Of a DNA stretch of 64,000 nucleotides, positions 37,158 to 62,615 are shown piece by piece (the first letter of the stretch is position 1; each line of letters opens with the position of its first letter). Both the position numbers and the translations under genes were made by a program. This DNA comes from Kiloniellales bacterium. GTDB lineage: Bacteria > Pseudomonadota > Alphaproteobacteria > Kiloniellales > JAKSDN01. The notes under the pieces were generated by a model that was not told the origin of the DNA, ran no database searches, and worked only from the letters and a program-made list of their open reading frames with translations. The stretch is taken from NCBI GenBank assembly GCA_028280455.1, contig JANQLT010000202.1, positions 1 through 64,000 on the forward strand. The letters are read 5' to 3'.

Positions 37158-38360
37158 CTACAGTCGAAGCAGCTCCTCTCCTAGACCGCTAGCTCGAATT
37201 CGCTGCGCCACATCCTTCAGGAAGGTTTCATCCTTGAGTAGCTCCGACAAGAACCTGTCTGTGTCACTGCGCTTGTGCAGCTGCTCCTGAAGGCTGTTGC
37301 ATTGGGACTCTAAACGGGAAACCGCAAGCTTCAGCTCTTGGTTCTCCTGCGTAGCCTGGCTCAAGCCATCGCCTCGTATGGATGCGATCGCGTCCTCTTC
37401 AACGACCCCAACCCGGTTGATGTAGCGGTCCGGCATGTCAGAGCTCATGGCCCAGCCCATGATCTTGCACATCTGATAGCGGCCAACCTTCTTGGAGGCT
37501 AGCCACGTAGCGAGACTGTCACGAATCAGTTGCGGACCGATCGGCTTTCCGAGGGCTCGCATGCCCACGCGCCTGAGGAACTTCAACAAGGCCTCATACC
37601 CCATCGGAAACAGCTGCTCCTCCGAGTTGTCAGGACTGGGATGCTGCGCCAGCCACTGTCGAAGGAGGTGAGCGCCCTCATGCACGGGTAAGCTCCTCCG
37701 GAAGGTTTTCGGGTGCTCGATGCCGACGATGAAATGGGAGCCCTTGTCTTCTGCATGGCCAACCCGGATGTTGAGAAACTCTTCGGCGCGAGCCCCCGTC
37801 TCGAACAGCGTCCATACGAGCGCTTTTCCTTTGGCCGTACTAGCGAACTCGCTGCACTTTCGGATTTCATCCACGGACAAGCTTCCAGGAGGCGGTTCCG
37901 TGATGCTCGTGTCAATCCATGCAACGAGGTCCGGGTACTGCTTCCCATTCCCGAGGAGCCATTTGTAGAACTTCTTCACGCAAACCTTGATGTCCCGGCG
38001 GGTCCACGCCGAGTAGGTTATCGATTGGCTGTCCGCGTCAGTCAGCGCATTCGCATCGATGTGAGATATGAACCGGTCCATGGCCGGCTGCGTCACCTTC
38101 TTCAGGTCCTCATTTCCGAGCCAGGACGAGACCCGCGGCAACAAATAGAGATACTTGAGAAGGCGCTTCTCCTGAATGCGCTTCCGTTGCCTGGTGAAGA
38201 TCGTCTTCCCCAGATGGCATGCGCGGACGAATTCGAGGATGTATCGCTTGTTGACCTCGGAGATGCTCTTGTCCTGCTCCAGGTTCTCCAGGCGGCGCAC
38301 GTAGGCCTGTGCGCAGCGATGCACATCGATCTTCGTTTGAGCGCGCGAGACCATAGCCAT
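37158..38360 (-). CDS. Second tyrosine recombinase, with C-terminal coiled coil
   Basis: A 400-residue tyrosine-recombinase-fold protein. Catalytic elements: Arg in FETGARAEEFLNIR (~190), QLIRDSLATWLASK (~275), where the Arg of HxxR is kept but the His is not, and DMPDRYINR with the candidate nucleophile Tyr (~312). The HxxR and LGH-type histidines are replaced, as in some archaeal-type and diverged bacterial members. The last ~65 residues form a coiled coil (ENQELKLAVSRLESQCNSL). GGAGGTATTGA precedes the ATG. It may resolve element dimers or control replication; it is unlike the integrase at 22989. Confidence 0.8.
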   Translation of the reverse strand: MAMVSRAQTKIDVHRCAQAYVRRLENLEQDKSISEVNKRYILEFVRACHLGKTIFTRQRKRIQEKRLLKYLYLLPRVSSWLGNEDLKKVTQPAMDRFISHIDANALTDADSQSITYSAWTRRDIKVCVKKFYKWLLGNGKQYPDLVAWIDTSITEPPPGSLSVDEIRKCSEFASTAKGKALVWTLFETGARAEEFLNIRVGHAEDKGSHFIVGIEHPKTFRRSLPVHEGAHLLRQWLAQHPSPDNSEEQLFPMGYEALLKFLRRVGMRALGKPIGPQLIRDSLATWLASKKVGRYQMCKIMGWAMSSDMPDRYINRVGVVEEDAIASIRGDGLSQATQENQELKLAVSRLESQCNSLQEQLHKRSDTDRFLSELLKDETFLKDVAQRIRASGLGEELLRL

Positions 38361-42592: not shown

Positions 42593-43381
42593 ATGATGGA
42601 GACCCCGTCCCTGGAAGCCAGATTGGAGCATGCAGACAGAAACCAGCGGCTGTCACGTCGCGAATTCCTAGCGGCGGGAGCTGCCGCTGCCTTAACCGCG
42701 GCAGCCGACTCGTCTATCGCCAATGCTGCCTCCGAACCCAGCAAAGAGGATATTCTCCGCTATCTGAGGCGCCGCGTTCCTGTTACCTATGTAGACAGCG
42801 AACTACCGCGGGTCGGTTCCGATTACCGGTCAACGCGTGCCCTCAACGGTAAGCGCCGATCAGGTGGGCTGCACAATGGCATCGATATGGCGCAGCCGTA
42901 TGGGACACCGGTAGTTGCTGCTGCTCCGGGTTGGGCTCGAAACGTTCGGACACCGCAAGGCGGGTTGCGCGTTGAGGTCTACCACGAGCAGAAACTCTAT
43001 CTGGACACCGATGGGGCGGGCGAGACCTACAGAGTTTCGGTACCGCTGTCGATTCTAACGACCTATGCCCATCTTTCCCGAAGTGAGATACCGCAGGACT
43101 ACGTCGGTAAGAAACACCTGTGGGTCAAGCGTGGCGACGTGATTGGCGCCGTCGGCCGCTCTGGCTCGTGGTCAGGCGATGTTACGCACCTGCATTTCGG
43201 CGCTCATACCAAGGGGCCCTATAGCCGCTGGGATGTATGGAAGGATATCAACCCGCACCTGCTGTGGGCGGATGGCCCCGGAAAGGTGACAAGGTACGAT
43301 CCATCACGCACCTACTCGGAACGAGCCGTAGAGCTTACGTACCCTCTGAACCCCATTCCGGCCAACGTGAGCAAAGTTTAG
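42593..43381 (+). CDS. Tat-exported M23-family metallopeptidase
   Basis: A 262-residue protein with a twin-arginine signal: a 19-residue polar lead, SRREFLAAGAAAALTAAA, cleavage near SIANA. The peptidase domain keeps both zinc motifs, GLHNGIDMA (HxxxD) and THLHFGAH (HxH), plus TYAHLS, so it should be an active periplasmic endopeptidase on peptidoglycan. It is a close relative of the degenerate copy at 25537 (shared RRVPVTY, HLLWADGPGKVT). Tat export is unusual for this family. It lies 45 bases before the TPR gene in the same direction, and shares a promoter region with the XRE gene. Confidence 0.83.
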   Translation: MMETPSLEARLEHADRNQRLSRREFLAAGAAAALTAAADSSIANAASEPSKEDILRYLRRRVPVTYVDSELPRVGSDYRSTRALNGKRRSGGLHNGIDMAQPYGTPVVAAAPGWARNVRTPQGGLRVEVYHEQKLYLDTDGAGETYRVSVPLSILTTYAHLSRSEIPQDYVGKKHLWVKRGDVIGAVGRSGSWSGDVTHLHFGAHTKGPYSRWDVWKDINPHLLWADGPGKVTRYDPSRTYSERAVELTYPLNPIPANVSKV

Positions 43382-43426
43382 GCACTGGAGCAAAGCCTTA
43401 TATATGAGCTGCTCCCATGATTGGGC

Positions 43427-44848
43427 ATGGATCGAGCAAAGTTTGTTGCTGGCATTCTCGCTATCTTCGTCATTGGTGTTCTCGCGGGCTATCTCGTCTC
43501 CTACCTTGGAGTATTGGATAGCGGTTCCTCGGCCACTGCCACCACAACAGGATGGTCACTCTATGCAGGAGAGCGACATGAAGAAGCATTGGAATGGTTC
43601 AATGCCGCGCTCATACACAATCGGAACGATGTTTCCGCGCGCACGGGATTGGGGTGGACCCTCTATCGCCTCAGACAGCTAGATGATGCAGTGGCAGCGT
43701 TTGAGGCTGCGCACAACCTCGCCCCACACTTTGCCGAGCCGCTCATCGGGCTGGGCTTCGCGAGGCTTGATCTGGGGGATTGGGACCTTGCGAAAAGGTC
43801 GTTCGAGCACGCACTTACCATTCAGGATGATAGTGCCCGCGCCCACAATGGCCTTGGTTGGGCAGCATTCTATAAGGCCCAAGAGCAGGAAGACCCGGAC
43901 AGTTTTGAACGGAGCCAACTCCTGAATGGCGCCAGGCAGAGCTTTCAGCGCTCGGTGCAGCTTGAACCAAATCACGTTGGCAGCCATCACGGGTTAGGAA
44001 GCAGCCTGTACTGGTTGGAGCTCGAGAAGCCGGCTGGCGCATGGGACTTTCTAGATGTCCGGGCAAGCATGCAGGCGGCAATCGACCTCGACCCAGACCT
44101 TATCAGTGCGCGGAATACCCTTGCTCGAACCTACTACTGGGACGATTACCAGAAGCCATACGGTAGTTCTAAGCGGACGTTCGAGACGGCAATTGCGGCC
44201 TTTGAATCGATCCTCGATCGCGAGCCGGACTACGCCCCGTCCTGGATCGGGTTGGGTTGGGCCCATCTTGGAGCAGACCAGCCGAAACAAGCGGCAGATG
44301 CGTTTGAGGAAGGGCTGCGGTTCGCACCCAATGATGTCAACGCGCACGCTGGCCTAGGGGAAGCGCTCTACGAACTGGGCAGCTACGAGGCTGCTCTCTC
44401 GGAGTTGAGAGCTGTACTAGAAAGCAAACCCGACAATCCTGAAGCTCAATCCAACGCCGGTTGGGCCATGCTCCGACTCGGCAAAACAGAGGAAGCAATA
44501 ACGGCATTCAACCGAGCGATCGAGATGGGGCCTTGGTTCTCCCCCTATCGCGGCCTCGGCTGGGCTTATCTCATGCAGGGACAGGACGAGCGCGCCCGAC
44601 AGAACTTCGAGAGGGCCATTGAGCTGAATCCTCAGATTGGAGAGAGCTACTTAGGCCTTGCATACCTGGAGGAACAACATGGCGACAATTCCGCTGCCGC
44701 CGAATGGATCGCACGGTACCAGAGCTCTTCCTACAAGCGCGGCTTTCTCTATCCAGAATTCGAGCAATGCACAGCTGCTGCCAATGGCATACTCCGGCCC
44801 CCACTCGTAGCTGATTGCGTGCGGAAGGCCACTGCAATTGCGACCTAG
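43427..44848 (+). CDS. Membrane-anchored tetratricopeptide-repeat protein
   Basis: A 473-residue protein with an N-terminal transmembrane helix (AGILAIFVIGVLAGYLVSYL, ~8-28) and about ten TPR units from residue ~40 to 440, with repeated patterns such as ARTGLGWTLYRLRQLDDAV and SWIGLGWAHLGADQPKQA. Each unit carries the GLGWA/L consensus, which suggests duplication inside the gene. The repeats should lie in the periplasm. It follows the M23 peptidase gene and is likely its partner or scaffold. The ATG at 43427 is preferred to a TTG two codons earlier. Confidence 0.8.
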   Translation: MDRAKFVAGILAIFVIGVLAGYLVSYLGVLDSGSSATATTTGWSLYAGERHEEALEWFNAALIHNRNDVSARTGLGWTLYRLRQLDDAVAAFEAAHNLAPHFAEPLIGLGFARLDLGDWDLAKRSFEHALTIQDDSARAHNGLGWAAFYKAQEQEDPDSFERSQLLNGARQSFQRSVQLEPNHVGSHHGLGSSLYWLELEKPAGAWDFLDVRASMQAAIDLDPDLISARNTLARTYYWDDYQKPYGSSKRTFETAIAAFESILDREPDYAPSWIGLGWAHLGADQPKQAADAFEEGLRFAPNDVNAHAGLGEALYELGSYEAALSELRAVLESKPDNPEAQSNAGWAMLRLGKTEEAITAFNRAIEMGPWFSPYRGLGWAYLMQGQDERARQNFERAIELNPQIGESYLGLAYLEEQHGDNSAAAEWIARYQSSSYKRGFLYPEFEQCTAAANGILRPPLVADCVRKATAIAT

Positions 44849-44859
44849 CACAATCCACA

Positions 44860-45639
44860 TCACTTCGTGTTGTGAACCACAGCTCCGTTGACAACGAAAT
44901 TCTGCGGCCCGCTTTCCATATGGAGATTGTAGACGACAGGACGGCTGGCGGCGATCTTTCGTGAGGCCGGTTCAAGAGACAGGACTGTACTGACCCCAGA
45001 AACAGTTCTGACACGCTCACCGGGAGCGAAAGTGGATATTGGACGATAGGTCGATGAATCCGGATCGTAGTATGGGTGGTTGGCCGTTACCTCTGTTTCA
45101 GTCAGAGTGCCACTGTCAGATACGACGAGAGAGAGGAGAGGATACGAATCGAAATCGTGGACCGGATTGTGCACTCCATCATGGACGTAGACCCGGCCGA
45201 CGACCGACGTAACGAACCGATCCGCCGTCTCATTGTAGGAGATGACCCTATCGCCGGCCTTGATGCCTGAGATTGGAGTAGGGCCGTCCGGCGTAAGCAC
45301 CTTCTCAGAGCCGACAAAGCATCCAACGCCGCCGCTCTCCCCACTACTGCCATCGGTGCCACCCTCAGTTCCTTCTCCTTCTCCAACTCCAGTATCTTGG
45401 CCCCATCCGCCACCGTCGTTCCCACCGTCAGCTCCGTCACCGCCGTCATCACTCCCCGGAAGGCAGCTGCCTTGGGCGAGAACGCCTGTCGCCAAGTAGG
45501 AAAGGACGAACGCGAGAAGGAGGACGGTGCCGATTGCAACGACCGAGCTCTTCGGAATGCGACTCGATTCGTCGTGGATGAATTGAACTATGGAGGCTTT
45601 GAAGTTCCTATAGGCTGCTAGAAAACTCTCACGCAACAT
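44860..45639 (-). CDS. Membrane-anchored stand-alone Hint (bacterial intein-like) protein
   Basis: A 259-residue protein: transmembrane helix ~32-52, a Gly/Asp/Glu-rich flexible linker (~60-106), then a Hint domain from Cys107 (GCFVGSEKVLTPDG). It shows all splicing blocks: the N-terminal nucleophile Cys, SGIKAGDRVISYNE, TANHPYYD (TxxH), VYNLHMESG and the terminal NGAVVHN followed by only Thr-Lys. The His256-Asn257-Thr258 ending is intact, so self-cleavage or ligation is chemically possible, but there is almost no C-extein. Such domains occur in secreted and polymorphic-toxin proteins. It converges on the TPR gene, with 11 bases between stops. Confidence 0.82.
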   Translation of the reverse strand: MLRESFLAAYRNFKASIVQFIHDESSRIPKSSVVAIGTVLLLAFVLSYLATGVLAQGSCLPGSDDGGDGADGGNDGGGWGQDTGVGEGEGTEGGTDGSSGESGGVGCFVGSEKVLTPDGPTPISGIKAGDRVISYNETADRFVTSVVGRVYVHDGVHNPVHDFDSYPLLSLVVSDSGTLTETEVTANHPYYDPDSSTYRPISTFAPGERVRTVSGVSTVLSLEPASRKIAASRPVVYNLHMESGPQNFVVNGAVVHNTK

Positions 45640-62571: not shown

Positions 62572-62615
62572 TGGCGTCCCCTAGGGGAGTCGAACCCCTG
62601 TTTTCGCCGTGAGAG
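62572..62615 (-). repeat. attR: Attachment-site copy 3, inside the intact tRNA-Glu gene
   Basis: The 44-bp att core in its complete tRNA context. It covers the anticodon loop through the encoded CCA end, so integration kept the tRNA whole. Confidence 0.92.

What the first reader, a model, noticed from the sequence alone, without database searches (positions are those of the whole stretch)
44860..45639. Membrane-anchored stand-alone Hint domain with almost no C-extein
All Hint/intein blocks appear intact (Cys107, TxxH, His-Asn at 256-257), but only Thr-Lys follows. The N-extein is a membrane helix plus an acidic Gly-rich linker. It could release or lipid-modify its N-terminal part, or be a pretoxin-type processor without a toxin. 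It sits tail to tail with an envelope TPR gene.
Basis: partly seen in the sequence, partly recalled or inferred. Interest (0 to 1): 0.7.

Follow-up and report, generated by a model that had tools for sequence, protein, structure and literature searches.

The report
Exported protein ending in self-cutting Hint
A bacterial gene encodes a membrane-anchored protein whose last part is an intact intein-like (Hint) self-processing domain with almost nothing behind it; the layout turns up again in exported proteins of related bacteria, so it is an unstudied variant of a known kind rather than something wholly new.

Summary
In detail: the minus-strand gene 44860-45639 encodes 259 aa with a hydrophobic helix (30-56), an acidic Gly-rich linker, and a Hint domain from Cys107 to Asn257 followed only by Thr-Lys. 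The AlphaFold model of residues 103-259 matches bacterial intein-like (BIL) domains best (2lwy, Z 19.3, rmsd 1.5, 135 residues). T185xxH188 and H256-N257 are present. No orthologue with this architecture was found, and no C-extein remnant downstream. The architecture is not unique: profile searches found five other Hints with 1-5 residue C-exteins (HN-K, HN-K, HN-KGG, HN-KGLW, HN-KCVQC) in five other families of the class; four have a visible signal peptide. One lies near a paralogue that shares its N-extein but lacks the Hint. C-terminal Hint domains on exported bacterial proteins are already in print (PMC2362128, passages). Best reading: an exported, intein/BIL-A-like Hint that severs itself from its membrane-bound acidic N-extein, by N-cleavage or by splicing onto Thr-Lys. 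Activity is inferred. The toxin-processor reading has little support; lipid modification has none.

The parts
44860..45639 (-). whole gene, 259 aa, ATG to TGA
45568..45639 (-). residues 1-24: N-terminal helix ahead of the hydrophobic segment
   Evidence: AlphaFold helix 2-24; residues 10-47 match the start of the NCBIfam HxsA3 profile weakly (24.1 bits, cut-off 65)
45472..45552 (-). residues 30-56: hydrophobic helix, signal anchor or long signal peptide; possible signal peptidase I site VLA|QG after residue 55
   Evidence: Kyte-Doolittle up to 2.35, helix 30-56; cleavage site by eye, motif recalled
45322..45471 (-). residues 57-106: acidic Gly-rich linker, predicted disordered
   Evidence: composition; pLDDT under 50 at 56-103
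44869..45321 (-). residues 107-257: Hint domain, 151 aa
45319..45321 (-). Cys107, first residue of the Hint (nucleophile of the N-S acyl shift)
   Evidence: invariant in A1 and A4
45076..45087 (-). T185-A-N-H188, block B TxxH
44869..44874 (-). His256-Asn257, block G
44863..44868 (-). Thr258-Lys259, the whole C-extein; Thr is a possible +1 nucleophile
43421..44848 (+). convergent TPR gene, 475 aa, N-terminal hydrophobic helix; ends 11 bases from the Hint stop codon
   Evidence: no match at E <= 1e-20 in the 20 relatives searched besides the own genome
42593..43381 (+). M23 peptidase gene upstream of the TPR gene, N-terminal SRREF.. Tat-like signal by eye
   Evidence: Pfam PF01551, 50.2 bits

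Best explanation
It is an exported, membrane-anchored precursor whose C-terminal Hint domain (intein/BIL-A-like) cuts itself off. Shown: the reading frame, hydrophobic helix, acidic linker predicted to be disordered, Hint fold (predicted model), Cys1, TxxH, His-Asn, a +1 Thr, a two-residue C-extein, and recurrence of the layout in other exported proteins. Inferred: the Hint faces the periplasm; Cys107 makes a thioester with Gly106; Asn257 cyclises; the thioester is then hydrolysed, or taken by Thr258 so that the N-extein is spliced onto Thr-Lys. Either way the outcome is nearly the same: a membrane-bound N-extein ending in an acidic Gly-rich tail, plus a free Hint. The N-extein, not a C-terminal cargo, would be the useful product.
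For: Fold: 2lwy Z 19.3, 6y75 Z 19.1, many inteins Z 13-18. Catalytic residues in place. Short C-exteins in five other Hints: L110 HN-K, L113 HN-K, L109 HN-KGG, L107 HN-KGLW, L083 HN-KCVQC. Of the 48 distinct Hints, 41 have a closed C-end and 5 of these have 1-5 residues behind HN (window included); L109 was lost to that filter and seen. Signal peptides are visible by eye in L110, L113 (as L123), L109 (as L121) and L083 (as L098). In G700 a nearby gene has the same N-extein (72% over 146 aa) without a Hint, which fits the N-extein being the product.
Against: No activity was measured, and no orthologue shows the residues under selection. The window's N-extein has no folded domain. Gln replaces the usual block-F His. 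The domain is a long branch that cannot be tied to the other short-tailed Hints, so their example is an analogy. In those the +1 residue is Lys, not Thr. L107 shows no signal peptide.
Confidence: 0.5

Rival explanations
1. A relic: a Hint that once sat inside a larger exoprotein (RTX/EF-hand type, as in Kiloniella) or polymorphic toxin and lost its C-extein; no longer under selection.
For: Closest sequence relatives are Hints inside large RTX/EF-hand exoproteins of the same order or class (L003/L080 and L082). Long branch (2.15-2.44). Stop codons 11 bases apart leave no room for a C-extein. No orthologue: only one of the other 97 genomes (G022) matches at E <= 0.001, and that match is the RTX protein.
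Against: Frame and catalytic residues intact. No remnant found downstream: 49 tail queries, best E 0.029, on the TPR gene's own strand and through a stop. Other Hints with 1-5 residue C-exteins exist in five families, so the layout is viable.
Confidence: 0.25
2. Hedgehog-like conjugation: the thioester at Gly106-Cys107 is attacked by an outside nucleophile (envelope amine, lipid head group, peptidoglycan), so the acidic Gly-rich tether becomes covalently attached to the envelope.
For: Layout as in Hedgehog: exported N-part, C-terminal Hint, no cargo behind it. Hog Hints 1at0 and 6tyy match at Z 15.6-15.7. An M23 peptidase and an anchored TPR protein are the neighbours.
Against: His-Asn and +1 Thr are kept, so C-side chemistry is possible. 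There is no room for a sterol-recognition-like region. No acceptor is known.
Confidence: 0.09
3. Inactive structural Hint: the fold serves as a periplasmic binding module and does not process anything.
For: Gln at the block-F position that is usually His; lone gene.
Against: Cys1, TxxH and His-Asn all kept, without a need for them if inert.
Confidence: 0.1
4. Orphan pretoxin processor: a polymorphic-toxin Hint cassette without its toxin.
For: Hints with C-exteins of about 75-180 aa, as in polymorphic toxins, are common in the phylum; the tree does not reject grouping with them (p-AU 0.405).
Against: PT-HINT below cut-off (18.4 against 27.7); no RHS or adhesin N-part; no toxin or immunity-like gene recognised beside it.
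Confidence: 0.06

Closest known systems
Bacterial intein-like (BIL) domains, type A; solved example 2lwy of Clostridium thermocellum
   Same: Best structural match (Z 19.3, rmsd 1.5, 135 aligned, 26% identity); 151 aa long; ends in His-Asn; sits in a non-conserved exported protein.
   Different: Thr at +1 where A-type BILs usually lack a nucleophile; C-extein of only 2 residues.
Class 1 inteins, e.g. the SufB-like intein of an Anaerolineae genome (L081; host protein named by eye)
   Same: Cys1, TxxH, His-Asn and a +1 nucleophile; 32% identity over the first 95 of 156 query residues.
   Different: No host protein to be restored: the C-extein is 2 residues and the N-extein is an anchor plus a linker.
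Exported bacterial proteins with a C-terminal Hint-like domain (Burglin 2008, PMC2362128, passages read; alignments in its supplements not seen)
   Same: Export signal or anchor, Hint at the C-terminus.
   Different: That group has two conserved cysteines upstream and a Hint divergent from BILs; here there is one upstream cysteine (Cys59) and a BIL/intein-like Hint.
Hedgehog / Hog autoprocessing domain
   Same: Exported N-part followed by a C-terminal Hint; fold match Z 15.6 (1at0).
   Different: No sterol-recognition region behind the Hint; His-Asn kept.
Hints in RTX/EF-hand exoproteins of Kiloniella laminariae (L003/L080) and an uncultured Rhodospirillales bacterium (L082)
   Same: Nearest relatives by sequence search; Gly-rich stretch before the Hint in L080.
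   Different: Those carry C-exteins of more than 1,600 residues in the stretch read.

Membership tests
Hint superfamily (fold) | Horseshoe Hint fold over the whole domain | tested here: met
   residues 104-257 on 2lwy, rmsd 1.5, Z 19.3; model built from 4 sequences, two loops under pLDDT 50
Class 1 intein | Cys or Ser at position 1, TxxH in block B, His-Asn at the end, Cys/Ser/Thr at +1 | tested here: met
   C107, T185-H188, H256-N257, T258; intein_Cterm 15.9 bits against 15.6
Class 1 intein | Interrupts a host protein that splicing restores | tested here: not met
   C-extein Thr-Lys only; N-extein has no folded family match
BIL type A | About 130-155 aa, ends in His-Asn, lies in variable non-conserved proteins (criteria from passages of PMC7765530 and PMC9185962) | tested here: met
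   151 aa, HN end; no orthologue in relatives
BIL type A | No nucleophile at +1 | tested here: inconclusive
   Thr at +1; PMC9185962 (passage) says a +1 Cys/Ser/Thr is not obligatory, PMC7664689 (passage) says it is lacking
Pretoxin Hint (PF07591) | Score over the family's curated cut-off | tested here: not met
   18.4 against 27.7 bits
Pretoxin Hint (PF07591) | Toxin domain behind the Hint | tested here: not met
   two residues behind the Hint; no remnant downstream
Hedgehog / Hog | Sterol-recognition region behind the Hint (described in PMC2362128, passage) | tested here: not met
   Hint ends two residues before the stop
Burglin's exported bacterial C-terminal Hint group | Two conserved cysteines upstream of the Hint | tested here: not met
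   only Cys59 upstream
Any self-processing Hint | Cleavage or splicing activity | not testable with these tools
   needs the purified protein
HxsA3 (NF038309) | Score over cut-off | tested here: not met
   24.1 against 65 bits, N-terminal part only

The most novel reading that the evidence does not exclude
A bacterial counterpart of Hedgehog processing: an exported Hint that uses its thioester to join a membrane-anchored acidic Gly-rich tether to a nucleophile of the envelope (peptidoglycan amine, lipid or protein), i.e. a sortase-free self-anchoring device, of which the HN-K proteins found here would be further examples.
Probability: 0.06. Interest if true: 0.85.

Novelty: new variant of a known kind. 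Interest (0 to 1): 0.4.

Why it matters
What bacterial Hint domains outside inteins and toxins are for is largely open. Exported proteins that keep Cys1 and His-Asn with nothing to release behind the Hint make a clean test: any processing must serve the N-terminal part. One mass-spectrometry experiment would tell cleavage, splicing onto one or two residues, and conjugation apart.

Tried and rejected
Close relatives: the search for related loci with the whole protein found none in genome contigs or viral contigs. Alignment A3 found none in viral contigs and 3 loci in genome contigs. Plasmids gave one weak Leptospira hit and phages none.

HxsA3 lead: residues 10-47 match the start of NF038309 (24.1 bits). 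In 299 genomes of the phylum 12 have a match at E <= 0.001, none over the cut-off; the other 11 matches begin at profile position 18 or later. No useful paper. One of the two matches lay in a GroEL gene stretch. Left as a weak lead.

Lost C-extein: no credible remnant downstream. Common origin of the short-tailed Hints with the window's: unresolved. For one search I left out five of the 47 rows (L081, L066, L060, L101, L063) because of their long branches.

One search counts: rows were gathered by profiles (A1, A2, A5), so they are not a random sample; A5 contains L098, a short-tailed Hint, which enriches for that kind. Seven of the 48 frames run off the locus, one row (L116, first entry) is a fragment, and L109 was dropped by the filter.

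Papers: searches for BIL with Gly-rich secreted proteins and for PKHD hydroxylase with Hint gave 0 papers, and one for standalone bacterial autoprocessing Hint 0; the held library lacks most subscription journals, and the papers of Amitai 2003 and Dassa 2004 were not read. That the short-tailed layout with kept His-Asn is undescribed is therefore not shown.

Full report
What is there. The minus-strand frame 45639-44860 begins with ATG (an in-frame TGA lies three codons upstream, by eye) and ends with TGA. It encodes 259 residues: a 24-residue helix, a hydrophobic helix at 30-56, a linker (57-106) rich in Gly, Asp, Glu, Ser and Thr without a single Lys or Arg, a Hint domain (107-257), and Thr-Lys. 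The convergent gene on the plus strand is a TPR protein (43421-44848) whose stop codon lies 11 bases away, behind an M23 peptidase gene (42593-43381). Base composition at the three codon positions resembles that of the neighbouring genes.

Is it a Hint? By sequence it is divergent: three Pfam Hint models match below their cut-offs, NCBIfam's intein C-terminal model just passes, and phmmer's best PDB matches are a Tetrahymena BIL domain (6y75, E 0.003; its title is) and the C. thermocellum BIL domain (E 0.013). An AlphaFold model from the window protein and three related Hints settles the fold: the best matches are the C. thermocellum BIL domain 2lwy (Z 19.3, rmsd 1.5 over 135 residues, 26% identity) and the Tetrahymena BIL2 domain 6y75 (Z 19.1), then inteins, with Hedgehog's own Hint at Z 15.6. 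Cys107, T185-A-N-H188, His256-Asn257 and a nucleophilic +1 residue (Thr258) are all present. One usual feature is missing: the block-F position is Gln246, where 7 of 9 compared Hints have His and 2 have Asn.

Relatives. The window's order is that of Kiloniella: genome G022's contig (8083 bases) and the Kiloniella laminariae contig NZ_KB893150.1 (8083 bases) carry the same Hint. Of 98 genomes (own included), 2 have a match at E <= 0.001, the own genome and G022. Of 398 genomes of the phylum, 11 do, own included; those that I could read carry Hints in other architectures. With a profile, 15 of 61 genomes of the order (E <= 0.001) and 62 of 398 of the phylum (E <= 1e-4) have Hint matches: proteins with roughly 75-180 aa C-exteins of polymorphic-toxin type, RTX/EF-hand exoproteins, inteins (in a helicase, L061, and in a SufB-like protein, L081) and Hint_2-like proteins (the types are named by eye).

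The short C-extein recurs. A second profile (A5), run on 289 genomes of the class at E <= 1e-10, matched 10 genomes, own included. Reading those proteins and earlier ones gave five further Hints that stop 1-5 residues behind His-Asn: L110 (372 aa, HN-K), L113/L123 (821 aa, HN-K), L109/L121 (422 aa, FecR domain then a Gly-rich linker, HN-KGG), L107/L124 (251 aa, HN-KGLW) and L083/L098 (311 aa, HN-KCVQC). Four of them have a signal peptide visible by eye; L107 does not. They come from five families of the class, none of them the window's. In one search, 5 of the 41 Hints with a closed C-end (48 rows in all) have 1-5 residues behind HN, the window's included; L109 is extra. The sample was gathered by profile, one of them containing such a protein, so this is not a frequency. 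In G700, a gene about 670 bases beyond the Hint gene encodes the same N-extein (72% identity over 146 residues) without a Hint. Nematode hedgehog-related genes show the same pattern, N-terminal domains with and without the autoprocessing part (PMC2362128, passage).

Phylogeny. In both trees (47 and 42 rows) four of the five short-tailed Hints (L109 was not in the set) and the tailed Hints of the window's order fall in one supported group (100/96 and 99/99), with L083 (short tail) branching first. The window's Hint is a long branch outside it; neither joining that group (p-AU 0.193) nor joining the toxin rows (p-AU 0.405) is rejected. So its short C-extein may be an independent case.

A mirror-image family in the same order. 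Eleven Hint proteins of the order (in L090-L097) have hydrophobic N-terminus - Hint - VHNK - acidic Gly-rich tail, all ending in ..GWQ..GWE..GWK or ..GWQR. In composition the window's linker (Gly 0.43, Asp+Glu 0.22, Ser+Thr 0.16) resembles those tails (Gly 0.32-0.45, Asp+Glu 0.19-0.48; 8 of the 11 tails were measured). The order of parts is reversed in the window. Gly/acidic low-complexity sequence is common, so this is suggestive only.

How it most likely works. The N-extein is anchored or led out by the helix; the Hint folds in the periplasm; Cys107 takes over the Gly106 carbonyl as a thioester; Asn257 cyclises. With Thr at +1 the canonical route would splice the N-extein onto Thr-Lys; with imperfect chemistry the thioester is hydrolysed. 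Both free the Hint and leave an acidic Gly-rich tail on the membrane. Every step after folding is inferred from the chemistry of inteins and BIL domains (PMC7664689, PMC7765530; passages read).

Known or new. Hint domains, BIL domains and even exported bacterial proteins with a C-terminal Hint-like domain are in print (PMC2362128, passage: some with signal peptides, two conserved upstream cysteines, a Hint divergent from BILs). The window protein does not meet the two-cysteine criterion and has a BIL/intein-like Hint with kept His-Asn, so I file it as a new variant of a known kind. I did not find the retained-HN, 1-5 residue C-extein layout described, but my searches cover open-licence papers only.

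Noticed in passing
A hydroxylase gene is seen (by its start, by eye) in 7 of the 8 stretches inspected (not in L095, a 5.1 kb contig); Pfam was run on two hydroxylases (L090, L096), two 17 kDa-like proteins (L090, L096), one sigma factor (L094) and one anti-sigma-like protein (L096) only. Three genomes carry two Hint genes about 2 kb apart.
   Followed up: partly
L094 4949-5335 (-), L097 8152-8601 (-): Next to the Hint genes lie small signal-peptide proteins whose remainder is almost wholly Gly, Asp, Glu and Ser, i.e. like the Hint protein's tail without the Hint. The hydroxylase next door might act on such tails.
   Followed up: partly
L106 7863-8573 (Aeromonas caviae record NZ_AP026896.1): A member of the same exported Hint - Gly-rich tail family in a gammaproteobacterium, without the hydroxylase cluster nearby by eye.
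   Followed up: partly
L122 4489-7142 (genome G700): HN-K Hint protein followed, one gene further on, by a paralogue with the same N-extein but no Hint (72% over 146 aa).
   Followed up: yes
window 37158-62647: Possible island: tyrosine recombinase gene (37158-38360), lower-GC stretch, DUF6876, HerA-like ATPase, a 2107-aa protein with a restriction-like start by eye, SIR2-like protein, AAA/Ppl-like protein, and tRNA-Glu at 62572; it looks like a defence island holding the Hint gene.
   Followed up: partly
window 45502-45612 (-): Residues 10-47 match the start of the HxsA3 profile at E 2e-5 but far below its cut-off.
   Followed up: partly
L067 (genome G255): A Hint between two Gly-rich stretches inside a protein that looks like a phage tail protein by eye.
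   Followed up: no
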